A DNA stretch of 64,000 nt from Myxococcus hansupus (GTDB lineage: Bacteria; Myxococcota; Myxococcia; Myxococcales; Myxococcaceae), in contig NZ_CP012109.1 of the NCBI RefSeq assembly GCF_000280925.3, forward strand, positions 9,274,001 through 9,338,000. Direction: 5' to 3'. A program made the position numbers and the translations under genes. The notes under the pieces were generated by a model that worked only from the letters and a program-made list of their open reading frames with translations, did not search any database and was not told the DNA's origin. This document shows positions 11,318 through 36,054 of this stretch, piece by piece (the first letter of the stretch is position 1; every line of letters begins with the position of its first letter).

Positions 11318-12529
11318 GTGAGCCAGGAAGCATTCATCTTCGACGCCGTTCGGACCCCTCGCGGCAAGGGCCGGAAGGGCTCGTTGCATGGCATCAAGCC
11401 CATCTCCCTGCTGGTGGGGCTGGTGGACGCGCTCAAGAAGCGCCACCCGAACCTGGACCCGAAGCGCATCGACGACATCGTGCTCGGCGTCGTCTCGCCC
11501 GTGGGCGACCAGGGCGCGGACATCGCGCGCACGCTGGTGCTGGCGGCGGGGCTGCCGGAGACGGTGGGCGGCGTGCAGCTCAACCGCTTCTGCGCCTCCG
11601 GCCTGACGGCGGTGAACATGGCCGCGCAGCAGGTGCGCTCGGGCTGGGAGCACCTTGTCATCGCGGGCGGCGTGGAGAGCATGTCGCGCGTGCCCATGGG
11701 CTCGGACGGTGGCGCGTGGGCCATGGACCCCGTCACCAACTTCGACACGTACTTCGTGCCGCAGGGCATCTCCGCGGACCTCATCGCCACCATCGAGGGC
11801 TTCACCCGCGAGGACGTGGACCGCTACGCGGAGCGCTCGCAGGTGCTCGCGGGCAAGGCGTGGGCGGGCGGGTACTTCAAGAACTCCATCGTCCCCGTGG
11901 TGGACCAGAACGGGCTCACCGTGCTGGAGCATGACGAGCTGATGCGCCCGGACTCCACCGTGGCGTCGCTGGGCAAGCTCAACCCGGCCTTCGCCGTGAT
12001 GGGTGAGGCGGGCGGCTTCGACGCGGTGGCGCTGCAGAAGTATCACCACGTGGAGCGCATCGAGCACGTGCACACGCCGGGCAACTCGTCGGGCATCGTG
12101 GACGGCGCGGCGCTGGTGCTCATCGGTTCGGAGCAGGTGGGTAAGTCGCTGGGCCTCACGCCGCGCGCGCGCATCGCCGCGGTGGCCACGTCCGGCGCGG
12201 ACCCGACCATCATGCTCACCGGTCCGACGCCGGCCACGCAGAAGCTGCTTCAAATCGCGGGCCTGTCGGTGAAGGACATCGACCTGTTCGAGCTGAACGA
12301 GGCCTTCGCCTCGGTGGTGCTCAAGTACCAGAAGGACCTCGGCATTCCGGACGAGAAGCTCAATGTGAACGGCGGCGCCATCGCCATGGGGCACCCGCTG
12401 GGCGCCACGGGCGCGATGATTCTGGGGACCATGGTGGACGAGCTGGAGCGCCGCAAGGCGCGCCGCGCGGTCATCACCCTGTGCGTGGGCGGTGGCATGG
12501 GCGTGGCCACCCTCATCGAGCGCGTCTGA
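11318..12529 (+). CDS. fadI: Acetyl-CoA C-acyltransferase (3-ketoacyl-CoA thiolase, FadI-like)
   Basis: 403 residues, starting at GTG 11318 behind AAGGAG (11305-11310). The nucleophile Cys lies in [15 protein letters not shown] (about residue 92), the catalytic His in [16 protein letters not shown] and the second Cys in CVGGGMG near the C-terminus: the complete thiolase triad. It cleaves 3-ketoacyl-CoA to acetyl-CoA and a shortened acyl-CoA, the last step of each beta-oxidation cycle. It is followed after 40 bases by the FadJ-like multifunctional gene, the partner with which FadI-type thiolases form a complex. M. xanthus has a described fadIJ operon, and this looks like the same pair. Confidence 0.92.
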
Positions 12530-12569
12530 GCTTCCTTCCCAAAACTTCGACAGGATTCGAGCGAACCCC

Positions 12570-14747
12570 ATGAGTGAGCAGAGCACCATCCGCTGGGAAC
12601 AAGACGCAGACGGCATCGTGGTCTTGACGTTGGATGACCCGAACCAGTCCGCGAACACCATGAACGCCGCGTACCTGAAGTCCATGCGCGCGACGGTGGA
12701 CCGGCTGGTCAAGGAGAAGGACAGCCTCTCCGGCGTCGTCATCACCTCCGCGAAGAAGACGTTCTTCGCCGGTGGCGACCTGAAGGACTTGCTGAAGGTG
12801 AAGAAGGAGGACGCCAAGCAGTCCTTCGAGCTGGGCCAGGAAATCAAGGCGCAGCTCCGCGCCCTGGAGACGCTGGGCAAGCCGGTGGTCGCGGCCATCA
12901 ACGGCGCGGCGCTGGGCGGTGGTCTGGAGATTGCCCTCGCGTGCCACCGCCGCATCGTGGCGGACGTGAAGGGCGTCCAGGTGGGCCTGCCCGAGGTGAC
13001 GCTGGGCCTGCTGCCCGGCGGCGGCGGCGTGGTGCGCACCGTGCGCATGCTGGGCATCGTGGATGCGCTGATGAAGGTGCTGCTCCAGGGCCAGCGCTAC
13101 CGCCCGCAGGAGGCGAAGGACGTCGGGCTGGTCCACGAGGTGGTGGACTCCGTGGAGGCGCTGCTGCCCGCCGCCAAGGCGTGGGTGAAGGCCAATCCCA
13201 GCGCGCAGCAGCCGTGGGATGTGAAGGGCTACAAGATTCCGGGCGGCACGCCGTCGCACCCCGGGCTCGCGGCCAACCTGCCCGCCTTCCCGGCCAACCT
13301 GCGCAAGCAGATCAAGGGCGCGAACATGCCCGCCCCCCGCGCCATCATGGCGGTGGCGGTGGAGGGCACGCAGGTGGACGTGGACACCGCGTTCACCATC
13401 GAGTCGCGCTACTTCACCGAGCTCGTCACCGGGCAGGTCGCGAAGAACATGATTCAGGCGTTCTTCTTCGACATGCAGCACATCAACTCTGGCGGTGGCC
13501 GGCCCAAGGGCTTCCCGCAGTACGCGGCGAAGAAGGTGGGCGTGCTGGGCGCCGGCATGATGGGCGCGGGCATCGCCTACGTCTGCGCCAAGGCCGGCAT
13601 CGACGTGGTGCTCAAGGACGTGAGCCTCGCCTCGGCGGAGAAGGGCAAGCAGTACTCCGTCAAGCTGGTGGAGAAGGCCATTCAGCGGGGCAAGTCCACG
13701 AAGGAGAAGGGTGACGCGCTGCTGGCGCGAATCACCCCGGCCGCGGACCCCGCCGCGCTGAAGGGGTGCGACGTCGTCATCGAGGCCGTCTTCGAGGACG
13801 TGAAGCTCAAGCACCAGGTGTTCCAGGAGGTGCAGGACGTGGTGGCGCCGGACGCGCTGCTCGCGTCCAACACGTCCACGCTGCCCATCTCCCTGCTGGC
13901 CGAGGGCGTGAAGCGCACCGACGACTTCGTGGGCATGCACTTCTTCTCCCCCGTGGACAAGATGCCGTTGCTGGAGCTCATCGCTGGGAAGAAGACGAGC
14001 GACGCGGCGCTGGCGAAGGCCATCGATATCGCGGTGCAGATTGGGAAGACGCCCATCGTCGTCAACGACAGCCGGGGCTTCTTCACCAGCCGCGTCATCG
14101 GCACCTTCCTCAACGAGGCCATCGCCATGGTGGGCGAGGGCATCGCGCCGGCCTCCATCGAGCAGGCGGGCCTCCAGGCGGGCTACCCCGCCGCCCCGCT
14201 CAGCTTGATGGACGAACTCACGCTGACGCTGCCGCGCAAGATTCGTCAGGAGACGAAGGCGGCCGCCGTGGCGGAGGGCAAGCCCTGGGCGGAGCACGGC
14301 AGCTACGCCGTGGTGGACGCGCTCATCGACCAGCACCAGCGCAAGGGCCGCTCCACGGGTGGCGGCTTCTACGACTACGAGGACGGCAAGCGCGCGGGCC
14401 TGTGGAAGGGCCTGGCGCAGCACTTCACCAAGCCCGGCCACACCATCCCCTTCGAGGACATGAAGGACCGGATGCTGTTCGCCGAGGCCGTGGACACGGT
14501 GCGCTGCTTCGACGAGGGCGTGCTGCGCTCGGCCGCAGACGCGAACATCGGCTCCATCCTGGGCATTGGCTTCCCCGCCTGGACGGGCGGCGTGGCGCAG
14601 TTCATCAACGGCTACGAGGGCCCGACGGGCACGGGCCTGCGCGGCTTCATCGCCCGCGCGCGGGAGCTGGCGGCGAAGTACGGGCCGCACTTCGAGCCGC
14701 CCGCGTCGCTGGTGGAGAAGGCGGAGAAGGGCGAGCTGCTGAAGTAG
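12570..14747 (+). CDS. fadJ: 3-hydroxyacyl-CoA dehydrogenase/enoyl-CoA hydratase (FadJ-like)
   Basis: 725 residues from the ATG at 12570. The N-terminal crotonase domain (about 1-200) contains KKTFFAGGDL and AAINGAALGGGLEIALACH with GLPEVTLGLLPGGGG. The central NAD-binding domain starts GVLGAGMMGAGIA (about residue 325), continues with ASNTSTLPIS and the signature MHFFSPVDKMPLLELI. The C-terminal dehydrogenase domains end near 700. It performs hydration of enoyl-CoA and NAD-dependent oxidation of the 3-hydroxyacyl-CoA. Domain order and length are those of the FadB/FadJ alpha subunit. It is the last gene of the operon and is followed by a strong terminator. Confidence 0.93.
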   Translation: MSEQSTIRWEQDADGIVVLTLDDPNQSANTMNAAYLKSMRATVDRLVKEKDSLSGVVITSAKKTFFAGGDLKDLLKVKKEDAKQSFELGQEIKAQLRALETLGKPVVAAINGAALGGGLEIALACHRRIVADVKGVQVGLPEVTLGLLPGGGGVVRTVRMLGIVDALMKVLLQGQRYRPQEAKDVGLVHEVVDSVEALLPAAKAWVKANPSAQQPWDVKGYKIPGGTPSHPGLAANLPAFPANLRKQIKGANMPAPRAIMAVAVEGTQVDVDTAFTIESRYFTELVTGQVAKNMIQAFFFDMQHINSGGGRPKGFPQYAAKKVGVLGAGMMGAGIAYVCAKAGIDVVLKDVSLASAEKGKQYSVKLVEKAIQRGKSTKEKGDALLARITPAADPAALKGCDVVIEAVFEDVKLKHQVFQEVQDVVAPDALLASNTSTLPISLLAEGVKRTDDFVGMHFFSPVDKMPLLELIAGKKTSDAALAKAIDIAVQIGKTPIVVNDSRGFFTSRVIGTFLNEAIAMVGEGIAPASIEQAGLQAGYPAAPLSLMDELTLTLPRKIRQETKAAAVAEGKPWAEHGSYAVVDALIDQHQRKGRSTGGGFYDYEDGKRAGLWKGLAQHFTKPGHTIPFEDMKDRMLFAEAVDTVRCFDEGVLRSAADANIGSILGIGFPAWTGGVAQFINGYEGPTGTGLRGFIARARELAAKYGPHFEPPASLVEKAEKGELLK

Positions 14748-14773
14748 CCGCTGCCCCTGGCCGGAAATGAAAG

Positions 14774-14807
14774 CGGCCTCCTGGCGTGGGTGCCAGGAGG
14801 CCGTTTT
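14774..14807. terminator. Bidirectional intrinsic terminator
   Basis: A perfect 12-bp stem, CGGCCTCCTGGC (14774-14785) with GCCAGGAGGCCG (14792-14803), a 6-base loop, then TTTT (14804-14807). It lies between the convergent fadJ-like gene (ends 14747) and the diheme cytochrome gene (ends 14820). On the minus strand the hairpin is followed by CTTT, so it can serve both. Confidence 0.92.
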
Positions 14808-14819
14808 CACGTCCAGACC

Positions 14820-16835
14820 TCAGAGCGTCTTGATGTACTCGATGATGGCCCAGCGCTCATCGTCGGTGAGCGACTGGTTGAAGTCGTGGCCCTCGTTGCC
14901 CAGGCCGTAGAGGTGCGAGTTGAAAATCATGCGGGAGCGAATCTGCTTCTGGGTGATGGGCGGCGGCGACTGGTAGGCCAGTGAGTTGTGGTTGGCCACC
15001 AGGTTGGCGATGTTGGCGAAGGCGATGTCGATGGTCGCCATGTGCTGGCTGCAGGGGATGAAGGGGTCCCTGCTGGGCACGTCGCCGCAGGCCAGCCGCG
15101 TCACCTTCCAGCCGAGCTTGTCGAAGTCGTACGCGTCGAAGCTCATGTCATAGCCGGCGTTGGTGCCAATGTTGTTGGGCTCCGTCTGCCGCCGCTGCCA
15201 CACCTTGGGGCGGTCCGACGGCTTCAGCACGTCCCACAGGGTAGGGACGCTGCTGTTGTGGAAGTAGGGCGCGGAGGCCCACGCGCCGTAGAGCGGCGGC
15301 GCGATGTAGCCGAACGGCTCGATCCAGATGTTCGGGCCTTCGGGCGAGTAGATGGGGCCCATGCCCCGGTCATACGCGGCGCGCGGCACGCGGCGCAGGG
15401 CGCTCGTGATGGGGTCGTCGAAGAAGCCGTGGTGGTCCGGGTGCATGTCATTGTAGGCCAGGAAGGACGTGTTCCAGGCCCGGCGCTTGCGTTCGTCCTC
15501 CATCAGGCCCTTGCGGGCGGGGTCCGTCCGGATGGTCTCGATGGGCGTGATGACGCCGGAGACGCCCTTGAGGCGCGGGTCGGGCAGGAAGGCCGGGTTG
15601 GCCGCGTGGCGCGGGGAGTAGACGCCGTGGCAGCTCGCGCAGGAGCCGTTGCCGGGCGTCTTGGGGATGTTGGGGTTGGCGCCGTTTGCCCAGAGGTCGC
15701 GCTCGTGGAAGAGGATGGCGCCCCGCTCCGCCAGCGCGGTGTTGATGGGCTTGGGATAGGTGGGGGGCGAGAGCGAGAGGAAGAAGTTGTCGTTGTCCTC
15801 GAACTCGATGGTGAGCGCGCGGCGCTCCTGGGCGGAGCGCCCGAGGTGCGCCATGCCGAACGCCATCTCCGAGCGGACGTTGTCCGACGTGAGCGCGCCG
15901 TCCCAGAACTGACGCGTCTTGAAGGCGCGGTGGAACCAGTTGGGGGCGCGCGACATGCCGCCGGCGTGCGTCGGGAAGTACTCGAGCAGGCTGGGCACCA
16001 TCGCCATGGAGTCCATGTCGAAGAGGGCGGGCAACAGGTCGACGATGCCGATGGCATCACTCATGCCGCGGCCCACGCTCCAGGGGACGGGCACGAGCTG
16101 GAACACGTTGCCCACGACGGTGGAGCGGAAGAAGTCGGACTGGATGAGGCCCGGGTCGCTGGCGTCCGTGGACCGGCCCCAGACGAAGTTCGACTCCTGG
16201 TCGGTGCCCAGCTGCGAGTCGTGACAGCCCGAACAGCTGGAGGCGATCAACCCCGTGTAGCGGCCGTTCGTGTCGCGCTCCTGCACGAGGCCCAGCGGGA
16301 GCTGGCCGCTGCCGCCGTTGGTGAAGTTGGGGTTCTCCCACGGCAGCGGATAGGGATTGCGGAAAGGCGCCTTCGTGAGGCCATAGCGCTTGATGACCTG
16401 CTCGTCGAAGTCCGCGGGCCGGAAGAGGTAACCCCATTGCAGATGGAGGTTGTGGTAGGCCGTTGCGGTGGTGAAGGGCTGGAAGTAGGCCCGTGTCTCG
16501 ATGTTCTTCTTTCCGCGGCTCACGCTCGCCCGGAACTCTCCGCACGTCGTGGGATTGGGCGGCAGGTTGGAGATGAACGGCGGCGGCGGTGAATGCAGAT
16601 CCACCCAGTAGGCGTTGAACTGCACCGCCGCTCCGGGCTTGTTGACGCCCGGCACCACCAGCGTGCGTGGGTCTACCGGCAGCGGGGTGGAGTCTGGCTT
16701 TCCCGCACAGGCCGCCGCGAAGGGCGCTCTCAGGGGTGTCATGTCCAGGAGCGGCGGCGCTGCTGCCTGCGCCACGCTCATACTCAGAAGCAGGGGACTC
16801 GAAAACGCCAACGAACGACGCCAGTGCAGGCGCAT
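14820..16835 (-). CDS. Diheme c-type cytochrome, RoxA-like rubber oxygenase candidate
   Basis: 671 residues from the ATG at 16835 behind a well-spaced GGAGGG. The in-frame TTG six bases further up overlaps the spacer. A Sec signal peptide (ends near AQAA) indicates export, and two heme c motifs, CSGCH (201-205) and CASCH (399-403), are about 200 residues apart. RoxA, the extracellular diheme dioxygenase of Xanthomonas that cleaves poly(cis-1,4-isoprene), has nearly the same length, heme motifs and spacing, and an FW...F pattern near the active heme. Here QFWDG and, 15 residues later, AFGMAH sit at the corresponding place. RoxA homologues are known in myxobacteria. It is alone between a terminator and a divergent acetyltransferase gene. 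Substrate is inferred. Confidence 0.8.
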   Translation of the reverse strand: MRLHWRRSLAFSSPLLLSMSVAQAAAPPLLDMTPLRAPFAAACAGKPDSTPLPVDPRTLVVPGVNKPGAAVQFNAYWVDLHSPPPPFISNLPPNPTTCGEFRASVSRGKKNIETRAYFQPFTTATAYHNLHLQWGYLFRPADFDEQVIKRYGLTKAPFRNPYPLPWENPNFTNGGSGQLPLGLVQERDTNGRYTGLIASSCSGCHDSQLGTDQESNFVWGRSTDASDPGLIQSDFFRSTVVGNVFQLVPVPWSVGRGMSDAIGIVDLLPALFDMDSMAMVPSLLEYFPTHAGGMSRAPNWFHRAFKTRQFWDGALTSDNVRSEMAFGMAHLGRSAQERRALTIEFEDNDNFFLSLSPPTYPKPINTALAERGAILFHERDLWANGANPNIPKTPGNGSCASCHGVYSPRHAANPAFLPDPRLKGVSGVITPIETIRTDPARKGLMEDERKRRAWNTSFLAYNDMHPDHHGFFDDPITSALRRVPRAAYDRGMGPIYSPEGPNIWIEPFGYIAPPLYGAWASAPYFHNSSVPTLWDVLKPSDRPKVWQRRQTEPNNIGTNAGYDMSFDAYDFDKLGWKVTRLACGDVPSRDPFIPCSQHMATIDIAFANIANLVANHNSLAYQSPPPITQKQIRSRMIFNSHLYGLGNEGHDFNQSLTDDERWAIIEYIKTL

Positions 16836-16984
16836 GCGCAACCCTCCAGTTGCTTATTGGCACGGTGACAACAAGAGGTTAAGTAGGCTTCCAGGTGAAG
16901 TCCCACAATACGCATCGCGTCAGTGTCCCCCTCGGGGAGACACACGGCCGTGGTGTGTCCGTGGAAACCCCCTACAGTGGCGGG

Positions 16985-17854
16985 ATGGGGATTCAACCGC
17001 GTGTCACGGAGGCCGGGCCGCGCGACGTGGCGCTGCATGCTTCGTTCTGCGACTACGTGTCACACGTCTTCACGCGCGCCGACTTCCGCCGGTGGACGGC
17101 GTGGGGTGAGTGGGATGACGGCTACCGCGCGTTCATGGTGGTGGAGGGCGGCCGCGTGGTGGCGAACGCGTCCGTGACGCGGATGCGGCTGCTGCTGGAT
17201 GGGCGCGAGGTCTCCGGGTTCCAGTTGGGCGCCGTGGGGTGTCTGCCCTCTGGGCGAGGGCGTGGGCTGGCACGGACGGTCATGGACGCGGCCCTGGCGT
17301 ACTGCGGGGAGGCGCCGGTGTTGCTGTTCGCCAATCCGAGCGTGCGGGCGTTCTACCCGCGCTTCGGCTTTCAGGCCCGGGGGCAGACGCTCTTCGCGGC
17401 TTCGCATGTGGCCAAGCCCGCGGGGCCGGCCGCGCCGCTCCTCGACGTGTCGCTGGCGGAGGTGCGGGCGGGGCTTGCCCGGCTGGCGGATGCGGGTGTT
17501 CCGGTGACGGAGCGCTTCGGCGCGCGGGGGCATTCGCGCATCGCGAGCTGGTACGCGGCGAATGGGTTCGCGCGGCCGCTGCGCCAGTTGCGCGACGATG
17601 CGTGGGTGTTCGCGGAGGTGGAGGGCGAGACGCTGTATGTCGATGACATCTTCGCGCGTGAGCCCTTCGACTTGAGCGCGGAGCTGCCGCGTCTTATCGA
17701 CCGGCCCATCACCTCCATCCAGTTCGGCTTCACGCCGGAGCGTTGGTGGCCCGGCGCGGAGCCCGTGGGGGAGGAGGCGGATGCCGACCTGTTCGTGCGT
17801 GGTGGAGGGTGGCCCGAGGGGTTTGAACGGTTCCCGGTGATGGCTCGGACCTGA
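16985..17854 (+). CDS. GNAT-family N-acetyltransferase
   Basis: 289 residues from the ATG at 16985. Upstream in-frame starts would add a non-conserved extension into the divergent promoter region. The acetyl-CoA binding motif A appears as LGAVGCLPSGRGRGLARTVM (the Q/R-x-x-G-x-G/A class), followed by NPSVRAFYPRFGF, typical of GNAT enzymes. The C-terminal half (about residue 160 on) looks like a second, degenerate GNAT lobe (ARGHSRIASWYAANGF...DDAWVF). Substrate unknown. The gene is divergent from the RoxA-like gene across about 150 bases and ends 14 bases before the truncated acyltransferase fragment. Confidence 0.8.
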   Translation: MGIQPRVTEAGPRDVALHASFCDYVSHVFTRADFRRWTAWGEWDDGYRAFMVVEGGRVVANASVTRMRLLLDGREVSGFQLGAVGCLPSGRGRGLARTVMDAALAYCGEAPVLLFANPSVRAFYPRFGFQARGQTLFAASHVAKPAGPAAPLLDVSLAEVRAGLARLADAGVPVTERFGARGHSRIASWYAANGFARPLRQLRDDAWVFAEVEGETLYVDDIFAREPFDLSAELPRLIDRPITSIQFGFTPERWWPGAEPVGEEADADLFVRGGGWPEGFERFPVMART

Positions 17855-17868
17855 GCAGTCAGCGGGCG

Positions 17869-18223
17869 TTAGCGGTAACTTATCCACGCGCTGGCGGAGC
17901 GCGCCTTCACGACGGCGAAGGCGCGGCAGGCGAACCACATGGGCACCGTGACCAGGAGCGCCAGCGTCCACACCGCGCCGACGCCGAGCAGGCAGAATAG
18001 CGTGTCCTGGTTCTGTCCGAAGGTGAACAGCGCAAGCCTGTTCAGTGCGTGCAGTAGGTGCAGGTGGACGACGTAGATGGACAGCGGCGCGGCGCCGAAC
18101 ACCGCCAGGGTGCGCGTCAGGGCCTTGGGGGCGTCGTCCACAGCAGGGCAAACAGCGCGGCGCCCACGCTGAGCATCGGCAGCAGGAAGTCGAGCGATGG
18201 CGGGTACTTCGTCGGGTTGGCGA
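17869..18223 (-). pseudogene. Truncated DUF1624/acyltransferase-like membrane protein remnant
   Basis: The region is about 88% identical by eye to the 3' end of the intact gene at 20848-22050, in the same orientation, and retains only about the last 115-120 codons. The last 90 codons are open (RTLAVFGAAPLSIYVVHLHLLHALNRL to the stop at 17869). Around 18135-18150 a two-base length difference shifts the frame, and the similarity stops near 18223, just before the promoter of the low-GC Z1 gene. It lacks a start and most membrane helices, so it is not functional. It marks the left edge of the foreign insertion. Confidence 0.8.
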
Positions 18224-18241
18224 CCAATCTCGTTAATGGAA

Positions 18242-18270
18242 TTGACGGAACGTGTTCATGGCGTTAACGT
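18242..18270 (+). promoter_or_regulatory. Candidate promoter of the Z1 gene with internal inverted repeat
   Basis: TTGACG (18242-18247), 17-base spacer, TAACGT (18265-18270), in a stretch far more AT-rich than the flanks. The spacer contains GAAC-GT-GTTC (18248-18257), a perfect inverted repeat that could be an operator, possibly for the HTH domain of the gene product itself. CGTTAACG (18262-18269) is also palindromic. The transcript would start about 20 bases before the ATG. Confidence 0.45.
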
Positions 18271-18294
18271 GTCCTTGTGAATGGAGGTCACAAC

Positions 18295-20634
18295 ATGGAC
18301 TCTGACTTGATTGGGCTGCATGAGATCGCGATGGCTGCCGGAGTTACACCTTCGGCCGTGGTGAATTGGCGAAAGCGGTTCGTCGACTTCCCTTCGCCTG
18401 TTGTCGAATTGAAATCAGGGCCTGTTTTTCGGGCAGTGCAGATCTACGCTTGGCTTGAAAAGCGTCAGCGGAAGGAACTCGGGTCCGCGACTCGATTGTA
18501 TGACCAGTTGGCCGCCAAGCGTAACGATGATGCCAGTCTGATCTCGAAGATTGAAGAAGCCGCGCACAAGCTGGCTGATGAGAACACCTCCGTCCGGAGC
18601 CCTGGTATGTTGCTTGGAAAAATCCAGAGCGGAAAGACAAGGGCATTTCTTGGAATTATAGCCAGGTGTTTTGATCTTGGTTACGAGCTTGCCGTCGTGC
18701 TTACGAAGGGCACCACGTCACTTGCACGCCAGACCTTGATGCGAATTAAAAAGGACTTTGCTGACTTCATTCAGACGGACGAGGTGCAGGTTTATGATGT
18801 GATGTCCCTTCCGAATTTGACGCCGTACGAGCTGAATCAGAAGCTGATTTTGGTTGTAAAAAAAGAAGACGACAATATGTCGCGCCTGATTGAGTCGGTT
18901 GAAGTGAAGTATCCAGTCTTGAAAAACAAGCGACTGCTGATTGTGGACGACGAGGCGGATTTTACGTCTGTTAGTTACAAGAAGAAGGATGGCGTTGTAG
19001 GGGTGGGGAAAATTTATGGTCAGATTGACTACCTCCGGAACCTTGTCGAGAAGTCCGATTTCTTGCAAGTGACGGCAACGCCATATGCGCTCTATCTTCA
19101 GCCGGAGGAAGGCATTGTCGAGGCCGGTGTTCAGTTGTTTAAGCCACTGAGGCCCAAGTTTACAGTCGTTCTGCCTGTGCATGACAGCTATGTCGGGGGA
19201 GATTATTATTTCGAAAAAAGTACGGAGCCGGACTCGCCCGCCTATTATTTTTATCGTGAGGTCCCTCTCGAAGAGCGAGAGGCATTGAAGAAGGAAGACC
19301 GACGAAGGATTAAGATTGAAAATGTATTGACGGAAAAGCGCGTGGCTGTGCTGCGCGATGCTGTTTTGACATTTATGGTGGGGGGGACCGTTAGGCGTCT
19401 GCAGTCAATGTCGAATAAGGAGCGTCCGCAAAAATATAGCTTCTTGTTTCATACCGAACAGGCCAGGAGTTCTCATGACTGGCAAGAGGAGATTGCTACT
19501 GCGATTCGTGATGGATTGGTGTCCGAAGCAGCGGAAGACAGTCCTTTGTTTAATGAGATCATGCTCCGGGCATTTTCGGACCTGAAGCGGTCTATTCAAC
19601 TTGCGGACTCCTTGACTCCCAGTTTTGAGGATGTGAAAGGGGAAGTGGTCAGGGCCCTTGTTGAAGGGCAGATGATGATTACTAAAGTTAACTCAGATAA
19701 GGATGTGGAAGAACTCCTGGATGAGGATGGGCAGCTCAAGCTCCGAACGCCATTTAATATCTTTATCGGAGGGCAGATTCTGGATCGTGGAATTACAATT
19801 AGGAACTTGATTGTGTTTTACTATGGGCGTAGTCCCAAGCGCTTTCAGCAGGATACGGTGCTGCAGCATTCGCGCATGTATGGTGCGCGTTCGATGGCGG
19901 ATTTGGCGGTGACGCGTTTTTATGCGCCCCAACATGTGTATCAGGTGATGCGAAAGATACATGCTTTTGATGTTGCCTTGCGAGAGGCGTTTGAGTCGGG
20001 GGCTCACGACCGTGGGGTTTATTTTATTCAAAAGGATGCGAGAGGAGTTGTTGTTCCTTGTTCGCCGAATAAGCTTATGTTTTCGGAGGTTACTAGTGTC
20101 CGGCCCGGGCGACGCATGCTGCCGGTTGGGTTTCAGACGGTCTCGAAGACGGCCGGTGCTAAGCGCCTCGCTAGTCTCGATGCTCGTGTTCGAGAGCTTG
20201 TTGGGGATGGAAATATAGGGCCGGTTTTGGTTGGGGTTCAGGATGCAGCTGAGTTGCTAGGGCTTGCGTATGAGAACCTTGAATTTGAAAGGGCTGAGGA
20301 GGATCCTCGAAAGGCACATGCTGCGGCCCTCGAGCACTTGTCTCGGACCTGCAAGGACTCTGAAATGGTAGGGAAGGTGTGGCTGCTTGTTTCTCGGGAC
20401 CGTGATGTCGCCCGGTACCGAGAAGAGGGGCGGTTCTCTAATGCGCCAGATACAAAACAACAGACAGAGTTGGCGCTTGCTAAGGCCGAACATGTCCCGG
20501 TGCTGATGCTGTTGCGGCAGAATGGTGATGAGAAGAGAGGGTGGCGCAATCTTCCATTCTGGTGGCCGGTAATTGTGCCGCCCAAGACAGCTGTGACATC
20601 TATCTTTGCATCTGATGTCCCGTCGCGTTCGTAG
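18295..20634 (+). CDS. HTH-SF2 helicase-Z1 domain protein, candidate defence gene
   Basis: 779 residues from the ATG at 18295, preceded by GGAGG (18283-18287). An in-frame GTG at 18277 overlaps that Shine-Dalgarno sequence. An N-terminal AlpA/MerR-like HTH (about 8-50, LHEIAMAAGVTPSAVVNWRKRF) is followed by a P-loop GKIQSGKT (108-115), a Walker B DDEAD (218-222), motif III-like TATPY (259-263), and the Z1 signature GGQILDRGIT (491-500) with QDTVLQHSRMYG (518-529). Z1-helicases are known from restriction-like and phage-defence modules with MutL-type ATPases, nucleases and methylases. None of these is adjacent. GC is near 50% and codon use unlike the roughly 70% GC neighbours, so the gene was acquired. 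Antiphage function is inferred from the family and context. Confidence 0.85.
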   Translation: MDSDLIGLHEIAMAAGVTPSAVVNWRKRFVDFPSPVVELKSGPVFRAVQIYAWLEKRQRKELGSATRLYDQLAAKRNDDASLISKIEEAAHKLADENTSVRSPGMLLGKIQSGKTRAFLGIIARCFDLGYELAVVLTKGTTSLARQTLMRIKKDFADFIQTDEVQVYDVMSLPNLTPYELNQKLILVVKKEDDNMSRLIESVEVKYPVLKNKRLLIVDDEADFTSVSYKKKDGVVGVGKIYGQIDYLRNLVEKSDFLQVTATPYALYLQPEEGIVEAGVQLFKPLRPKFTVVLPVHDSYVGGDYYFEKSTEPDSPAYYFYREVPLEEREALKKEDRRRIKIENVLTEKRVAVLRDAVLTFMVGGTVRRLQSMSNKERPQKYSFLFHTEQARSSHDWQEEIATAIRDGLVSEAAEDSPLFNEIMLRAFSDLKRSIQLADSLTPSFEDVKGEVVRALVEGQMMITKVNSDKDVEELLDEDGQLKLRTPFNIFIGGQILDRGITIRNLIVFYYGRSPKRFQQDTVLQHSRMYGARSMADLAVTRFYAPQHVYQVMRKIHAFDVALREAFESGAHDRGVYFIQKDARGVVVPCSPNKLMFSEVTSVRPGRRMLPVGFQTVSKTAGAKRLASLDARVRELVGDGNIGPVLVGVQDAAELLGLAYENLEFERAEEDPRKAHAAALEHLSRTCKDSEMVGKVWLLVSRDRDVARYREEGRFSNAPDTKQQTELALAKAEHVPVLMLLRQNGDEKRGWRNLPFWWPVIVPPKTAVTSIFASDVPSRS

Positions 20635-20704
20635 GGTGTCTGCTCTGTGCTGAGGGCGTATCCCTTCAAGCAAAACATTCCGTAGGGCGATGTCGAACCC
20701 TGAC

Positions 20705-20730
20705 CGTGCTCGGAGATGTGCACGAGCACG
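20705..20730 (+). terminator. Hairpin downstream of the Z1 gene
   Basis: CGTGCTC (20705-20711) pairs with GAGCACG (20724-20730), about 70 bases after the Z1 stop. No T run follows (a G run does), so it may be a weak or Rho-assisted terminator or simply a structural remnant. The rest of the 213-base gap to 20847 shows no gene. Confidence 0.3.
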
Positions 20731-20847
20731 GGGGGAAGTGTGCTCGTAAGGCGGATATGTGACGTACCTGAATGACCTGGGGCGTGTGTCGCGGCAAAAC
20801 TGTTGCCATGTGTCTGTAATGCGGTCGCCGATGAGTATCAAAAACAG

Positions 20848-22050
20848 TCAGAGGTAGCTCATCCAGGGGCTGGCGGAGCGCGCCTTCAAGCTGGCGAAGG
20901 CGCGGCAGGCGAACCACATGGGCACCGTGGCCAGGAGCGCCAGTGTCCACACCGCGCCGACGCCGGGCAGGCTGAACAGCGCGCCCTGGTTGGGCCCGAA
21001 GGCCGCCAGCGCGAGCTTGTTCAGCGCGTGCAGCAGGTACAGGTGGACGACGTAGAAGAACAGCGGCGCGGCGCCGAACACCACCAGGGTGCGCGTCACG
21101 GAGTCGGGCGCGTCGTTCAATAGCGCCAGCAGCGCCGCACCCGCGCCGAGCGTCAGCAGCAGGAAGTCGAGCGACGGCGGGTACTTCGTCAGATTGACGA
21201 AGGACATGGCCGTCTCCAGGGCCGTCGTGCCGGGTGTCCATGGGAGCGGCTCGCCGTAGATATTGATGAGCCGCAGCAGCACGAAGAGGCCCACCGAACT
21301 GGCCGCGGACAGCCACAGGCGTTTCCGCCGGACCTCGGGCGCGACCTGGGAGGAGAACCACGGCCCCACCGCGAAGCCCAGGGCGATGACGCCCAGCCAC
21401 GGCAGCACCGGATAGGAGGTCTTGAGCTGCGCGCCCCAGGGGAGGGCGATGAAGCCGCGGTCATGCAGCAGGGCCCAGAGCGCGTGCCCGGGCTCACCGG
21501 CCTCGAAGTGGATGGGGCCCAGCAGGTTGTGGCCGAAAATCACCACCAGCGCGAAGGTGAGCAGGGTCGGGCGCGGCAGGTGGAGCAGGGCCGCCAGCAC
21601 CATCATGGACACCCCAATCGCGCCGATGACCTGGAAGTAATACGTCGGGGGGACGAGCGTGAAGGTCCAGGCGAAGTTGATGACCGTCAGTTCGAGCACC
21701 AGCAGGAAGAGCCCGCGCTTGAACAGGAAGCTGGAGGCCGCGCGGCGTCCACCGTGCCGCTGACCGTAAAGCCACGCGGCCACACCGGTGAGGATGACGA
21801 ACACCGGCGCGCACAGGTGCGCGGCCATTCGCGTGAAGAAGAGGCTCGGGGGCGTCGTGGCGACGTCCACCGGGTCGCTGACCTGGGCGTGCAGGTAGAA
21901 GAACTCCCGCACGTGGTCGACGATCATCAGCGCCATGACAAACCCTCGCAGCGCGTCGATGCTGACGACGCGGCGACCCTTGGCGCGCGCCGTTTCGGGC
22001 GAGGTGGCGGTGGTATCCGCGGAGGGATGAAGCTGAAGGGAGTGGGGCAT
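20848..22050 (-). CDS. Multi-pass membrane protein, DUF1624/heparan N-acetyltransferase-like
   Basis: About 400 residues from ATG 22050. A GTG at 22095 is an alternative start, and neither has a clear ribosome binding site. After a cytoplasmic N-terminus comes the family signature VSIDALRGFVMALMIVDHVREFF, with the conserved Asp-Ala-x-Arg-Gly and Asp-His. About ten hydrophobic helices follow, with the loop LFLLVLELTVINFAW and the C-terminal YVVHLYLLHALNKL. Relatives are integral-membrane acyltransferases that acetylate extracytoplasmic glycans. Substrate unknown here. A shortened, frameshifted copy of its 3' end lies at 17869-18223, beyond the Z1 gene. This copy appears intact. Confidence 0.8.
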   Translation of the reverse strand: MPHSLQLHPSADTTATSPETARAKGRRVVSIDALRGFVMALMIVDHVREFFYLHAQVSDPVDVATTPPSLFFTRMAAHLCAPVFVILTGVAAWLYGQRHGGRRAASSFLFKRGLFLLVLELTVINFAWTFTLVPPTYYFQVIGAIGVSMMVLAALLHLPRPTLLTFALVVIFGHNLLGPIHFEAGEPGHALWALLHDRGFIALPWGAQLKTSYPVLPWLGVIALGFAVGPWFSSQVAPEVRRKRLWLSAASSVGLFVLLRLINIYGEPLPWTPGTTALETAMSFVNLTKYPPSLDFLLLTLGAGAALLALLNDAPDSVTRTLVVFGAAPLFFYVVHLYLLHALNKLALAAFGPNQGALFSLPGVGAVWTLALLATVPMWFACRAFASLKARSASPWMSYL

Positions 22051-22302
22051 CGGCGATCGTGGGCCACGCCATCCGCGCGGCGGTGGGGAGAACACGCGCG
22101 CCAGGTTCTGGCTTTCAGTCCGCTGGGGCGCCTGCTGGGACGCACGTCGGATAGCAGCGTGTCGTCACGCGCGCAGGCGGAAACCGGCGGGGAGAATCCT
22201 TGTTCCTCGCCGTGGGCACGAAGTACATGGATTGAAGTGGCACTTGCATCATGATGGCGATGAGTCGCCCTTGTCCGGACGGCCTTGGGGGCGCTCAGGT
22301 CG

Positions 22303-22346: not shown

Positions 22347-22964
22347 CTATTGCTGCCGGCCCTCGATGGCGCACATGAGCACCGCCGAGGCGACGCCGAG
22401 CCGCCGGTCCAACTGGTGGTCGAGGTCCATGGAGAAGTCCAAATCAATCTTCTGGATGAAGGGGTTGAAGCGCTGGTGGAAGGCGAGCACCTGGTTGAGC
22501 CCCATCGTCCCGGTGAAGGACTGGGGAATCAGGTTGGAGAGGAAGCGGCGCACCAGCGCCATCATCATGCTGTCCTCTTCAATCTTCCCCACCTCCTGGT
22601 CATTCGCATCCAGCACCAGCCACTGGTCGCGGAGGAGGGAGCGCAGGCCCTTGCGGCGCAGGGCGCCCAGGCGCTCGCCCGTGACGGCGTCCGTCACGTC
22701 GTACGTCATGCCGAAGTCGAGGATGCCGCGCGCCTTGATGGTGATGAGCTCCTCGCGCATCTCCTCGTCGGTGTAGATGCGGATGTCCTCCTTCAGCTTG
22801 AAGGCCTTCATCTTCGAATAGAACGCGAGGTTGCCCGCCTCGTCGTAGATGTGGAACGCGTCGCCGAACAGCTTGAAGAACTTGCGGCGAATCATGTAGC
22901 GCGTCTGGCCGAAGCGGCCGGGGGCCAGGTGGCTGGGAGCACGGGTCTGGAGTGCGGTCGACAT
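22347..22964 (-). CDS. LURP-one-related/scramblase-like family protein
   Basis: 205 residues from the ATG at 22964 behind a GGGGGTGG. Residues 20-190 show the tubby-like beta-barrel pattern of the LURP-one/phospholipid-scramblase clan: RYMIRRKFFKLFGDAFHIYDEAGNLAFYS, then FKLKEDIRIYTDEE, and later GALRRKGLRSLLRDQWLVLDANDQEVGKIEED. Each is a lipid- or membrane-associated beta-strand repeat. No catalytic site is expected. Bacterial members are uncharacterised. It is 86 bases downstream of regA on the same strand and may be the last gene of that operon, hence a possible output of RegA, but its own promoter cannot be excluded. Confidence 0.8.
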   Translation of the reverse strand: MSTALQTRAPSHLAPGRFGQTRYMIRRKFFKLFGDAFHIYDEAGNLAFYSKMKAFKLKEDIRIYTDEEMREELITIKARGILDFGMTYDVTDAVTGERLGALRRKGLRSLLRDQWLVLDANDQEVGKIEEDSMMMALVRRFLSNLIPQSFTGTMGLNQVLAFHQRFNPFIQKIDLDFSMDLDHQLDRRLGVASAVLMCAIEGRQQ

Positions 22965-28693: not shown

Positions 28694-29995
28694 GTGACGG
28701 CTTTCGTTGGGATTGCTACACCGAAGGGGACGATGACCCCCAGGCTCGGATCCGCCCAGGACACGGGGCCGGACGTCACAACGCCAGACGGTGGAGGCAG
28801 CGCGGCGCCAGGCCCTCGCGAGTCCGCGCGGCCCGTGGAGCTGTCGGAGCTCATGGCCACCGTGCCGCTGGGCATGGCCGTCATCGACCCCGAGCTGCGC
28901 TTCGTCGAGGTCAGCGAGGCCATGGCCGCCATGCACGGCGCGTCACGCGAGGCCCACCTGGGCCAGCTCATGACGGACGTGCTGCGCGCCGAGCCCTCCG
29001 CCGCCGACGTGGTGCGCCGCGTCCGCCGCGTCCTGGAGACGGGCGTGGCGCTGGAGGGCGTGGAGATCATCCACCGCGAATCCGGCACCCACGGCGAGCG
29101 CACCCGTGTCTACCGGGCGAGCTACCATCCGGTCCGCCGCGACGGCGCCGTGGTCGCCGCGTGCATCTACGTGGAGGACATGACGGAGCGCCGCCGCGTG
29201 GAGGCCCAACGCGACGCGGGAGCCGCCCGGGAGCGCACGGTGCGCGAGCAGGCCCTGCGCGAGACGCAGGAGGCGGTGCGCGCCCGCGACGAGTTCCTCA
29301 GCGTGGCGGCCCATGAGCTGCGCACCCCGCTCACCAGCCTGCGCCTGCACCTCCAGTTGCTGCTGCGCCAGGTGGCGGGCACGTCCGCGGAGCCGCCCGC
29401 GGAGCTGGCCCCCCGGGCCCGCGTGCTGGACCGTCAGCTGTCCCGGCTGGCGGGGCTGGTGAACACGCTGCTGGACGTGTCGCGGCTGGCCGCGGGGCGC
29501 CTGTCGCTGGAGCCTCGGGAGCTGGACCTGGCGCAGGTGGTGCGGCAGATGGCGGAGGCCTTCTCCGAGGAGTTCAGCCGCTCCGGCAGCACCCTGTCGC
29601 TGCACGTGGACGGACCGCTGCTCGGGGAGTGGGACTCCCTGCGCCTGGAGCAGGTGCTGGTGAACCTGCTGTCCAACGCCGTGAAGTACGGCGAGGGCCG
29701 GCCGGTGGAGGTGTCGCTGGTGGGCGAGGGCCCCACGGCGGTGCTCGCCGTGAAGGACCAGGGCATCGGCATCTCCGAGGACGGCATGGCGCGGCTGTTC
29801 GGCAAGTTCGAGCGCGCGGTGTCGGAGCGGCACTACGGCGGCCTGGGCCTGGGGCTCTACATCACCCGGCAAATCGTGGAGGCCATGGGCGGCAGCATCA
29901 CCGTGCGCTCCGCGCAGGGAAAGGGCTCCACGTTCATCCTCCGGCTGCCCACCCGGCCCCCCGCGCCCAAGAAGGCCGCCGCGGGCGCGCGGTAG
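28694..29995 (+). CDS. PAS sensor histidine kinase
   Basis: About 433 residues from a GTG at 28694 behind GGGGGG; an ATG at 28733 is the alternative. An N-terminal PAS domain (PVELSELMATVPLGMAVIDPELRFVEVSEAMAAMHG...YVEDMTERRRVE) is followed by a coiled linker and HisKA with AAHELRTPLTSL (His about 206). Then come LLSNAVKYG (N-box), DQGIGI (G1) and YGGLGLGLYI (G2). It has no membrane helices. The linker and H-box DNA (29258-29331) is almost identical to that of the hybrid kinase at 34093-36054, so the two are paralogues. It is convergent with a lipoprotein gene across a strong hairpin. No cognate receiver is adjacent. Confidence 0.85.
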   Translation: MTAFVGIATPKGTMTPRLGSAQDTGPDVTTPDGGGSAAPGPRESARPVELSELMATVPLGMAVIDPELRFVEVSEAMAAMHGASREAHLGQLMTDVLRAEPSAADVVRRVRRVLETGVALEGVEIIHRESGTHGERTRVYRASYHPVRRDGAVVAACIYVEDMTERRRVEAQRDAGAARERTVREQALRETQEAVRARDEFLSVAAHELRTPLTSLRLHLQLLLRQVAGTSAEPPAELAPRARVLDRQLSRLAGLVNTLLDVSRLAAGRLSLEPRELDLAQVVRQMAEAFSEEFSRSGSTLSLHVDGPLLGEWDSLRLEQVLVNLLSNAVKYGEGRPVEVSLVGEGPTAVLAVKDQGIGISEDGMARLFGKFERAVSERHYGGLGLGLYITRQIVEAMGGSITVRSAQGKGSTFILRLPTRPPAPKKAAAGAR

Positions 29996-34092: not shown

Positions 34093-36054
34093 ATGACGCC
34101 CTCCCTCCTGCTCATTGAAGACCCCGGCACCACGCGGGAGCTCCAGGTGCTCGCCCTGGAGAGTCAGGGTTGGAAGGTGAGGGTGGCGCCAGACGTGCCG
34201 GGAGCGCTGACCTGGCTCCAGGTGGAGCCGGTGCGGCTGGTGGTGGTGTCCGCAAGCCTGCTGGTGGCGCATGGGACGCACCTGGACACGCTGCGTCGCG
34301 TCCTGAAGGAGGCGGGGGCCTTGCTCCAGGTCAGTGCCTTCCCCGCTGAGCGGGAAGCGCTGGCCTCGCTTGGCCTCCCGGTGGAGCGCTACCTGGGCCG
34401 GCCCTTGACGCTGGGGGCGCTGGTGGAGGGCTCTCGGCACGCCTTTCCCAAGGACGAGGCCCACGAGCGTGCGCGGCCCCGGGTGCTGGTGGCGGACGAC
34501 GACCCCGTCTCGCGCAAGCTGGCGCAGTTGTACCTGTCACCGTTCCGCTTCGAGCTGGCGATGGCGGCGGATGGCGCCATGGCGCTGGACCTGGCGCGGC
34601 GCCGCCCCCCGGACGTGGTGCTGGCGGACGCGCTCATGCCGGGCATGGACGGCTTCAAGCTGTGCCTGGAGCTGCGGCAGGACCCGCGGCTGGCGCGGGT
34701 CCCCGTCATCCTCACGCACGCGGTGGCCCCCGACGAGCTGGACCTGCGGCTGGCCCACAACGTGGGCGCCAACGGCTTCGTGCGCAGGACGCAGGACGGG
34801 GACGAGCTGGTGGGGGCCTTGTTGCGCGAGCTGCGCGCCGGTGGCCCCGCGTACACCGCGCCCCCCGTGGACCTGAGCACCGAGGACCACCTGTACCGGA
34901 TGGTGCGGCAGCTCGAGCGGCGGGTGGGACTGCTGGAGCAGGCCGAGCGCACCACGCGTGAGAGCGAAGCGCGCTACCGCCTGGTGGTGAGTGGCTCCTA
35001 CGACGGCATCTGGGACTGGGACTTGCGCGGGCAGGCCTTCTACTGGAGCCCGCCGCTGCTGGAGATGCTGGGCCTGGGGCCCGAGGAGTTCGGTGGCACC
35101 TTCGCCTCGTTCCTGGAGCTGATTCACCCGGAGGACCGGTCCGACGTCCTGTCCGCGCTGTCCTCGCACCTGGAGCGGGGCGAGCCCTATGACGTGTCCA
35201 TGCGGCTGCGGCACGCCTCGGGCACCTGGCGCTCGTGTGTGAGCCGGGGCAAGGCGCTGCGGGACGCGCAGGGCCGGCCGGTGCGGATGGCCGGCATCAT
35301 CGGGGACGTGACGGAGCAGTTGCGCATGTACCGCGAGACGCAGGAGGCGGTGCGCGCCCGCGACGAATTCCTCAGCGTGGCGGCCCACGAGCTGCGCACT
35401 CCGCTGGCGGCGCTGCGACTGCGCGTGCAAGGCGCCCAGGGCGCGCTGCGCGCGGGGCTGAAGATGGGCCCGGAGCGGCTGGAGCGCGCGCTGGAGGCCG
35501 CGGACCGGCAGGTGCAGCGATTGTCGGACCTGGTGGAGTCGTTGCTGGACGTGTCGCAGCTCCAGGGGGGCGCGCCGCGCCTGGACCTGGAAGAGGTGGA
35601 CCTGGCGTCGGTGGTGCGGGACGCGGTGTCGCGCTCGGAAGAGGCGGCGGCGCGCGTGGGCTGTCGGCTCGTCCTCAGTCCGCTGGCGCCCACGCCGGGC
35701 CTGTGGGACGCGGCCCGGCTGTCGCAGGTGATGACGCACCTGTTGTCCAACGCGTTGAAGTTCGGGCCCGGCAAGCCGGTGGAAGTGGCGCTGGAGTCCG
35801 AGCGGGACGTGGCGACGCTGATGGTGAAGGACCATGGCATCGGCATCGCGCCTGGGCGGCTGGAGACGCTTTTCCGCCGCTTCGAGCGCGCCGTGCCGGT
35901 GCGGCACTACGGCGGGCTGGGCCTGGGGCTGTACCGGCTGCGCCGCATCGTGGAGGCCCACGGTGGCGGCGTGTCGGTGGACAGCGCCCCGGGCGAGGGC
36001 GCCACGTTCCGCGTGCGCCTGCCGCGTGAGGGGCCGCCCGCCGCGCGGGACTGA
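34093..36054 (+). CDS. Hybrid sensor kinase: degenerate REC, REC, PAS, HisKA, HATPase
   Basis: 653 residues from the ATG at 34093. No strong ribosome binding site is visible, and upstream frame is unlikely to be coding. Residues 1-125 look like a receiver that has lost its phospho-acceptor (LLLIEDPGTT...RLVVVSASLL in place of VLxD). Residues 130-255 are a canonical receiver (VLVADDDPVSRK, Asp about 179 in VLADALMPGMDG), although its late Lys region reads FVRRTQ. A PAS domain (YRLVVSGSYDGIWDWDLRG) follows, then HisKA with AAHELRTPLAAL (His about 432), LLSNALKFG, DHGIGI and YGGLGLGLY. It is soluble. Input receivers ahead of a kinase suggest it integrates another phosphorelay. Confidence 0.87.
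   Translation: MTPSLLLIEDPGTTRELQVLALESQGWKVRVAPDVPGALTWLQVEPVRLVVVSASLLVAHGTHLDTLRRVLKEAGALLQVSAFPAEREALASLGLPVERYLGRPLTLGALVEGSRHAFPKDEAHERARPRVLVADDDPVSRKLAQLYLSPFRFELAMAADGAMALDLARRRPPDVVLADALMPGMDGFKLCLELRQDPRLARVPVILTHAVAPDELDLRLAHNVGANGFVRRTQDGDELVGALLRELRAGGPAYTAPPVDLSTEDHLYRMVRQLERRVGLLEQAERTTRESEARYRLVVSGSYDGIWDWDLRGQAFYWSPPLLEMLGLGPEEFGGTFASFLELIHPEDRSDVLSALSSHLERGEPYDVSMRLRHASGTWRSCVSRGKALRDAQGRPVRMAGIIGDVTEQLRMYRETQEAVRARDEFLSVAAHELRTPLAALRLRVQGAQGALRAGLKMGPERLERALEAADRQVQRLSDLVESLLDVSQLQGGAPRLDLEEVDLASVVRDAVSRSEEAAARVGCRLVLSPLAPTPGLWDAARLSQVMTHLLSNALKFGPGKPVEVALESERDVATLMVKDHGIGIAPGRLETLFRRFERAVPVRHYGGLGLGLYRLRRIVEAHGGGVSVDSAPGEGATFRVRLPREGPPAARD

What the first reader, a model, noticed from the sequence alone, without database searches (positions are those of the whole stretch)
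17869..22050. Foreign single-gene island carrying a Z1 helicase between a truncated and an intact copy of the same gene
The 18295-20634 gene is far lower in GC than everything around it. To its left is a frameshifted, 5'-truncated fragment of a membrane-acyltransferase-like gene, and to its right is the full gene in the same orientation, about 88% identical over roughly 350 bases. No transposase, integrase or inverted repeat is visible. The arrangement suggests capture by homologous recombination inside a host gene family, giving an excisable cargo: recombination between the direct copies would delete the Z1 gene and leave one intact acyltransferase gene. A cargo exchanged this way would be easy to miss.
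Basis: partly seen in the sequence, partly recalled or inferred. Interest (0 to 1): 0.82.

Follow-up and report, generated by a model that had tools for sequence, protein, structure and literature searches.

The report
Self-regulated lone restriction-type ATPase gene
A soil predator bacterium carries one foreign gene, wedged into the end of a host gene, for a DNA-motor protein of the kind found beside restriction enzymes; the protein has a built-in DNA-binding head and its gene has matching control sites, so it probably switches itself on and off wherever it lands.

Summary
In a 9,490,432-bp Myxococcus genome (the size of M. hansupus CP012109) a low-GC gene (18295-20634) lies between a dead copy of the last ~118 codons of an acyltransferase gene (17868-18223) and the intact gene (20848-22095); identity is 85%, not 88%. 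Three relatives have one acyltransferase there and no cargo. None shows other cargo, and the closest relative has lost the acyltransferase, so an exchange site is not supported.

The gene encodes an SF2/Z1 ATPase of the restriction-modification type with a MerR-like winged-helix head on its N-terminus. The new result is its control region: 17-bp palindromes (TGTG-N9-CACA, 7 of 8 bases or better) lie upstream of 16 of 17 homologues with the head, against 1 of 69 without it, and of 10 of 11 ParA proteins with the same head. A matrix trained without the window ranks the window's site first in 64 kb. The 2.6-kb island begins 7 bp before the first predicted operator. I read it as a single-gene cargo that represses itself, with methylase M.SsoII as nearest precedent. 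Binding, repression, ATPase activity and phage defence are inferred. How it inserted is unresolved.

The parts
17868..18223 (-). Dead copy of the last ~118 codons of the acyltransferase gene, frame-shifted by a 2-bp indel; keeps the native spacing to GNAT (14 bp between stops; 15 in G077)
18224..20846 (+). The foreign island: control region, one gene, 3' non-coding stretch with a hairpin; GC about 0.51-0.56 in its long parts
   Evidence: no match to the relatives' neighbourhoods compared
18231..18247 (+). Predicted operator 1 (CGTTAATGGAATTGACG), weakest; contains the -35-like TTGACG at 18242-18247
   Evidence: rank 6 of the 64 kb by a matrix trained without the window
18253..18269 (+). Predicted operator 2 (TGTTCATGGCGTTAACG)
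   Evidence: rank 5 of the 64 kb by the same matrix
18276..18292 (+). Predicted operator 3 (TGTGAATGGAGGTCACA), covers the ribosome-binding GGAGG at 18283-18287
   Evidence: rank 1 of the 64 kb (17.9, next 13.1); the pattern TGTGAANNNNNNTCACA occurs once in the genome
18295..20634 (+). Gene for the head-SF2-Z1 ATPase (779 aa from ATG 18295)
18295..18474 (+). N-terminal MerR-like winged-helix head (residues 1-60)
19351..19998 (+). Z1 domain (Pfam stretch 359-574 of the 785-aa reading)
20704..20731 (+). Hairpin with 9-bp arms after the gene; no T run, so a terminator is only a guess
   Evidence: not listed by the terminator scan
20847..21200 (-). 3' end of the intact gene that matches the dead copy; homology ends one base past the stop codon
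20848..22095 (-). Intact acyltransferase-like gene (415 aa)
16895..17854 (+). GNAT acetyltransferase gene, left anchor of the site in relatives
22347..22964 (-). Conserved gene of unknown family, right anchor of the site; matched in 27 of 27 genus genomes

Best explanation
The island is a horizontally acquired single gene with its own control region. It encodes an ATPase of the restriction-modification type (SF2 motor plus Z1 domain) with a MerR-like winged-helix head. The head most likely binds tandem 17-bp palindromes between the -35 box and the start codon and represses its own gene, so the unit brings its own regulator into any host. Shown by computation: the architecture; intact motor motifs; the association of head and palindromes; empty sites in relatives. 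Inferred: DNA binding, repression, and a role in restriction-type defence as a DNA-dependent motor, alone or with a partner encoded elsewhere. It probably entered by homology-assisted recombination that left a second copy of the last 354 bp of the acyltransferase gene, so the host gene stayed whole; this last step is the least certain.
For: A palindrome TGTG-N9-CACA (7 of 8 bases or better) lies within 90 bp upstream of 13 of 14 head-bearing Z1 genes (8 of 14 perfect), against 1 of 69 headless ones (0 perfect) and 0 of 113 other genes in the same loci. Three head-bearing genes fetched afterwards all have perfect sites. Together 16 of 17 (11 perfect), while 300 dinucleotide-shuffled sets never held more than 2 perfect; Fisher p about 3e-15 against the headless set, ignoring relatedness. 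The same head on ParA: 10 of 11 (5 perfect). Matrix without the window ranks the window's site first in 64 kb. The head folds like MerR/BldC/RacA DNA-binding domains. Walker A (QSGKT), DDEAD, TATP, LDRG and QHSRM stretches are invariant in 14 of 14. SF2 fold, best PDB match HsdR. Empty sites. Lone relatives at unrelated sites: beside guaA in Methylovirgula (L086) and between a transporter and a flavoprotein gene in Roseiarcus (L150).
Against: No experiment. The homologues are related, so the counts are not independent. A 7/8 site arises in about 10% of dinucleotide shuffles. In the window only one of the three sites is strong, and ranks 2 and 4 of the matrix scan lie inside the low-GC gene itself, so AT-richness helps the scores of the weaker sites. 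One head-bearing gene (L153) reaches only 6/8. The head's PDB matches are weak by E-value (best 0.018, none at 0.001) and it matches no Pfam family by itself. A defence role rests on neighbours of relatives; here no R-M gene was found beside the gene. The promoter scan found no sigma-70 match upstream.
Confidence: 0.6

Rival explanations
1. Relic of a larger, recombinase-borne restriction island that entered the acyltransferase gene by site-specific recombination, supplying a new 3' end, and later lost its recombinase and R-M genes.
For: Relatives sit by recombinases: tyrosine recombinases beside L163 and L154, a serine recombinase in L146; L163 also has a methylase. The anatomy (whole gene on one side, displaced 3' end on the other) is that of elements that integrate inside genes (recalled).
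Against: One long ORF in 2.6 kb and no recombinase among the flanking genes scanned. The repeat is a 354-bp gene fragment at 85%, not a short exact core. The copies look like a lineage-internal duplication.
Confidence: 0.3
2. The acyltransferase 3' end was duplicated in tandem first, and the Z1 gene then landed between or in the older copy.
For: Left and right copies form a sister pair (0.957 FastTree; 93 IQ-TREE) with a long left branch (0.168-0.179 against 0.036-0.044).
Against: Needs two events at one spot; the left copy ends where the island begins; no relative read has a tandem pair.
Confidence: 0.25
3. One reading: an excisable cargo exchanged by homologous recombination between copies of a host gene.
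For: Direct copies, single-gene cargo, empty sites with one acyltransferase; 37-bp exact block.
Against: No other cargo in any relative read; the closest relative lost the acyltransferase as well; copies at 85% with short exact blocks.
Confidence: 0.15
4. The palindromes are sites of a host regulator (CRP-like), not of the fused head.
For: TGTGA...TCACA resembles the CRP consensus (recalled), and the -35-like boxes suggest an ordinary promoter.
Against: Spacing is 7, not the 6 of CRP (recalled). Sites follow the head (16 of 17 against 1 of 69) and occur with it on ParA too, in different bacterial classes and phyla. In this genome the strict pattern occurs once.
Confidence: 0.12

Closest known systems
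N-proteins of the CglI and NgoAVII restriction systems (PMC4267653, passages read)
   Same: SF2 motor plus Z1 domain; restriction-type ATPase
   Different: Those stand with a C5 methylase and a nuclease they need for activity; their stated domains are helicase, Z1 and C-terminal, with no regulatory head mentioned; here the gene is alone
M.SsoII / M.Ecl18kI methylase with N-terminal regulatory region (PMC3978073, passages read)
   Same: An enzyme of a restriction system whose N-terminal domain binds a palindrome in its own promoter and represses its own gene
   Different: There a methylase with a 15-bp site, shown by experiment; here a motor with tandem 17-bp sites, by comparison only
ParA/RepA partition ATPases that repress their own operons (PMC4492784, search listing only; P1 ParA recalled)
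   Same: ATPase with its own repressor activity; the very same head occurs on ParA proteins here
   Different: Partition proteins, unrelated ATPase fold to SF2/Z1
RptR and C-proteins (PMC12255303, passages read)
   Same: Repression of defence genes through palindromes in the promoter, RptR with tandem sites
   Different: Separate small proteins, not fused to the effector
MzaC of the MZA system
   Same: Z1 domain; weak profile match
   Different: 54 bits against a cut-off of 1500; none of the other MZA components (recalled from the system's name) was sought

Membership tests
Z1-domain SF2 ATPases | Z1 domain over the curated cut-off | tested here: met
   PF10593, 75.4 bits against 25
Z1-domain SF2 ATPases | SF2 motor motifs intact | tested here: met
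   invariant in 14 of 14 aligned relatives; SF2 fold
CglI/NgoAVII-type restriction system | Methylase and nuclease genes beside the ATPase | tested here: not met
   flanking genes scanned are GNAT, acyltransferase, a cytochrome-like gene and one without a family; methylase genes found by two families lie elsewhere in the genome, nearest hit about 0.87 Mb away
CglI/NgoAVII-type restriction system | DNA-dependent ATPase that needs the nuclease | not testable with these tools
   biochemistry
MZA system | MzaC equivalog score | tested here: not met
   54.1 bits against 1500
Self-repressing proteins with fused head | Winged-helix DNA-binding head | tested here: met
   model and weak PDB matches; conserved in 18 of 18 aligned
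Self-repressing proteins with fused head | Palindromes in the own promoter that go with the head | tested here: met
   16 of 17 against 1 of 69
Self-repressing proteins with fused head | Binding and repression | not testable with these tools
   needs gel shift and reporter
Integrative mobile element | Recombinase gene inside or beside the element | tested here: not met
   one long ORF in the island; four flanking genes scanned
Integrative mobile element | Short exact attachment-site repeat | tested here: inconclusive
   only the 354-bp repeat at 85% was found

The most novel reading that the evidence does not exclude
The MerR-like head together with its tandem operators is a portable self-repression cassette that has been attached to unrelated ATPases (a partition-type ParA and a restriction-type SF2/Z1 motor), making each a one-gene unit that regulates itself in any new host; for restriction systems it would be a fourth mode of transcriptional control, seated in the motor subunit.
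Probability: 0.5. Interest if true: 0.7.

Novelty: new variant of a known kind. Interest (0 to 1): 0.55.

Why it matters
How defence genes avoid harming a new host bears on how they spread. PMC3978073 (passages read) lists three modes of transcriptional control in restriction systems: a C-protein, methylase activity, and methylase binding. A motor protein carrying its own repressor head would be a fourth, and would help to explain how a lone Z1 gene can travel as a single-gene cargo (here, beside guaA in Methylovirgula, and between a transporter and a flavoprotein gene in Roseiarcus). The predicted operators give direct, cheap tests. No paper in the library joins 'Z1 domain' and 'autoregulat' (0 papers), and I saw none on such a fusion in the listings; most subscription journals are not held.

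Tried and rejected
Exchange-slot idea: looked for other cargo at the site in the neighbourhoods fetched (20 stretches); none found. Codon-position test for decay of the left copy: private changes 9/12/14 against 17/10/33 pooled for two functional branches; suggestive but not significant (chi-square p 0.13), so I do not lean on it. Dating: the left branch (0.17-0.18) is longer than the four-fold divergence to G066 would allow (0.10 for the pair), hinting that the event predates that split and G066 lost the locus; rates may differ, so only a hint. Repeats around relatives' islands: nothing convincing in five loci. Promoter scan: none of 3 sigma-70-like matches lies upstream of the gene. Sequence search of the PDB: 0 hits. 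Viral scan with the single protein: 0 relatives. The head by itself: 0 Pfam families. Tree support for the two copies as sisters falls from 93-96 to 76-81 without columns 236-280.

Rows left out: one search kept the best 80 of 310 relatives; head-bearing means those 13 whose match begins at query residue 1-7. Of 8 loci, 5 were examined (the matches of L164, L166, L168 begin beyond the head); L169 and L170 show no head, no site and an unclear start and were not counted. Of 17 loci, 3 are the contigs of L163, L165, L167 and were not counted again; L191-L193 are weak short matches, neither ParA nor Z1, without sites, and were not counted. L183-L185 are near-identical and were counted apart (10 distinct upstream regions of 11). 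In one search only ORFs of 150 aa or more with 90 bp upstream served as 'other genes'. Methylase neighbours were found with profiles built here, so 38 of 82 is a lower bound.

Full report
WHERE IT IS. The window lies at 9,274,001-9,338,000 of a single-contig genome of 9,490,432 bp. PMC4765838 (passages read) gives exactly that size for Myxococcus hansupus CP012109; I use the name on this basis only.

THE OBSERVATION. The gene at 18295-20634 has GC 0.51, where 1-kb stretches away from it run 0.64-0.77, and codon-position GC unlike its neighbour. It is flanked by two same-strand copies of the end of an acyltransferase-like gene: a fragment at 17868-18223 and the whole gene at 20848-22095, 84.8% identical over 356 columns with a 2-bp indel.

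THE SITE IN RELATIVES. In the family, 35 of 96 genomes (this one included) have some match to the acyltransferase and 18 of 96 some match to the Z1 protein at E 0.001 or better. Most Z1 matches are distant; the best outside this genome is 45% identical (G031) and lies by transposase-like genes, not at this site. In G077, G065 and G075 a single acyltransferase gene stands right beside the same GNAT gene without cargo (the GNAT gene is internally deleted in G075). G078 keeps only the acyltransferase's 5' part. G076 has no match to it. G062 and G074 have neither GNAT nor acyltransferase in the stretch read. The closest relative, G066 (95% DNA identity over 12000-17856), goes from the GNAT stop to the next gene's stop in 17 bp. 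So the cargo is an insertion not seen in the relatives, and the locus is prone to loss, but nothing shows exchange of cargo.

THE TWO COPIES. On 11 sequences left and right copies are sisters (0.957 by FastTree; 93 by IQ-TREE) with a long left branch. Of 10 sites that favour this grouping in one quartet, 8 lie in columns 240-274; without that patch support is 76-81. The left copy keeps the native spacing to GNAT (14 bp between stops, 15 in G077), and the homology of the right copy ends one base past its stop codon. The simplest picture is that an incoming molecule, or a repair event, inserted the island and a second copy of the last 354 bp, leaving the gene whole. I could not separate homology-assisted recombination from a lost recombinase or a prior tandem duplication.

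THE PROTEIN. Pfam finds Z1 and PADLOC finds Helicase_II at E 7.6e-59. Motor motifs are invariant in alignments of 3 and of 14 relatives. The AlphaFold2 model (pLDDT 83.8) matches SF2 motors, best the HsdR subunit of EcoR124I (E 9.7e-10, but global TM-scores are only about 0.3). Relatives at 61-68% identity occur in Massilia, an acidobacterial bin and two alphaproteobacteria, and one at 66% on an IMG/VR contig. Neighbours of relatives include a SmaI-type enzyme with its methylase (L082), a MvaI/BcnI-type enzyme (L089), a GIY-YIG nuclease, C5 methylase and Vsr (L145, L152, L153 in part), an Mrr-like nuclease (L084), an HsdM methylase (L165), and a methylase plus tyrosine recombinase (L163). By my own profiles a methylase lies within 5 kb in 38 of 82 loci; of the other 44, 31 have at least 5 kb on both sides, though these are not all lone genes (L084 has the Mrr-like gene). 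L086 stands between guaA and a murein transglycosylase gene, L150 between a tricarballylate-type transporter and a flavoprotein gene. Ten Halobacillus loci carry a headless Z1 gene, most with the same flanking genes and nine of them with no methylase in 5 kb on either side; median aa identity is 79% at 66% four-fold difference, so the gene is under constraint there.

THE HEAD AND ITS OPERATORS. The window's protein and 13 of the 80 loci kept begin with a ~60-residue domain absent from the rest. Its model (pLDDT 79.9) is a helix-turn-helix with a two-strand wing; the best PDB matches are BldC-DNA, RacA-DNA and MerR proteins, weak by E-value (0.018 at best). Reading the upstream regions showed a TTGACA-like box followed by palindromes TGTG-N9-CACA. 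Within 90 bp of the start, 13 of 14 head-bearing genes have a site at 7/8 or better and 8 of 14 a perfect one, against 1 and 0 of 69 headless Z1 genes (2 of 69 at 7/8 when 90 bp into the gene are added) and 0 of 113 other genes in the same loci. Three head-bearing genes fetched afterwards all have perfect sites; one of them, L163, has four sites 22 bp apart, the last one base different from the window's. In all, 16 of 17 have 7/8 or better and 11 of 17 are perfect; in 300 dinucleotide-shuffled sets a perfect site arises in 0.75% of sequences, never in more than 2 of 17, and a 7/8 site in 10%. A matrix built without the window puts 18276-18292 first in 64 kb (17.9, next 13.1); ranks 5 and 6 (18253-18269, 18231-18247) lie in the same promoter at the same 22-23 bp spacing, but ranks 2 and 4 lie inside the low-GC gene, so composition helps the weaker scores. 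The island starts 7 bp before the first of these sites. Two sites 17-24 bp apart (6/8 or better) occur in 11 of the 16 other head-bearing Z1 genes.

THE SAME HEAD ON PARA. A scan with the head alone found it in further viral-collection contigs; 11 of these read as ParA fusions (Pfam and NCBIfam were run on L186 and on L038, which bears the same head-ParA sequence as L188; the rest were judged from their sequence). Of the 11, 10 have a site at 7/8 or better and 5 a perfect one; 9 have two sites 17-24 bp apart. The eleventh (L188, from another Myxococcus, G061) has the variant TGTTGACGAAGGTAACA. Head and palindrome thus go together on two unrelated ATPases, which argues that the head itself reads the palindrome. 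In 195 Myxococcota genomes the head was found only in this genome and in G061.

HOW IT MOST LIKELY WORKS. Shown by comparison: a self-contained gene with a head and matching tandem palindromes, intact motor motifs, and a foreign origin. Inferred: the head binds the array as dimers and limits transcription (and perhaps translation, since one site covers the ribosome-binding site), while the motor acts on DNA as in restriction systems. The N-proteins of CglI and NgoAVII need their nuclease partner for ATPase activity (PMC4267653, passages). The genome has methylases elsewhere (PMC4765838, passages), so an unlinked partner is possible but unproven.

KNOWN OR NEW. That Z1 helicases go with restriction systems is known (PMC4267653, PMC5379612, PMC7251935; passages read). 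PMC3978073 (passages) lists three ways in which restriction systems control transcription; the closest is M.SsoII, a methylase with an N-terminal regulatory region. A motor with its own repressor head is a variant of that. I did not see it in the listings. It is a new variant of a known kind, of moderate interest until binding is shown.

Noticed in passing
L180-L190, about 60 bp upstream of each head-ParA start: The same winged-helix head fused to ParA, with tandem palindromes, on contigs of a viral collection and in another Myxococcus (G061, L038/L188).
   Followed up: partly
L106, L108, L110, L111, L113, L115, L117, L118, L122, L124: Ten Halobacillus loci keep a headless Z1 gene, most between the same flanking genes, nine without a methylase in 5 kb on either side, and under constraint: a Z1 protein may work without a linked R-M partner.
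   Followed up: partly
L060 (G066), L065 (G078), L061 (G076), L066 (G074), L067 (G062): The GNAT-acyltransferase locus has been eroded in several different ways in close relatives of the window's genome.
   Followed up: partly
L033 738-3696: In G031 the 45%-identical headless Z1 gene stands 86 bp before a GGDEF-domain gene with a cysteine-rich tail, between transposase-like ORFs.
   Followed up: no
window 29258-29949 and 35332-36023; 41949-42111 and 59394-59557: Other repeats in the window: a ~700-bp direct repeat at 69% and a ~160-bp inverted repeat at 77%.
   Followed up: no
window 14820-16841: A RoxA-like cytochrome gene (PF21419), the family of rubber oxygenases (recalled).
   Followed up: no
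residues 9-87 of the window protein: PADLOC profiles MTase_I and PDC-M06B match only the head region, so the head may occur on further defence proteins.
   Followed up: no
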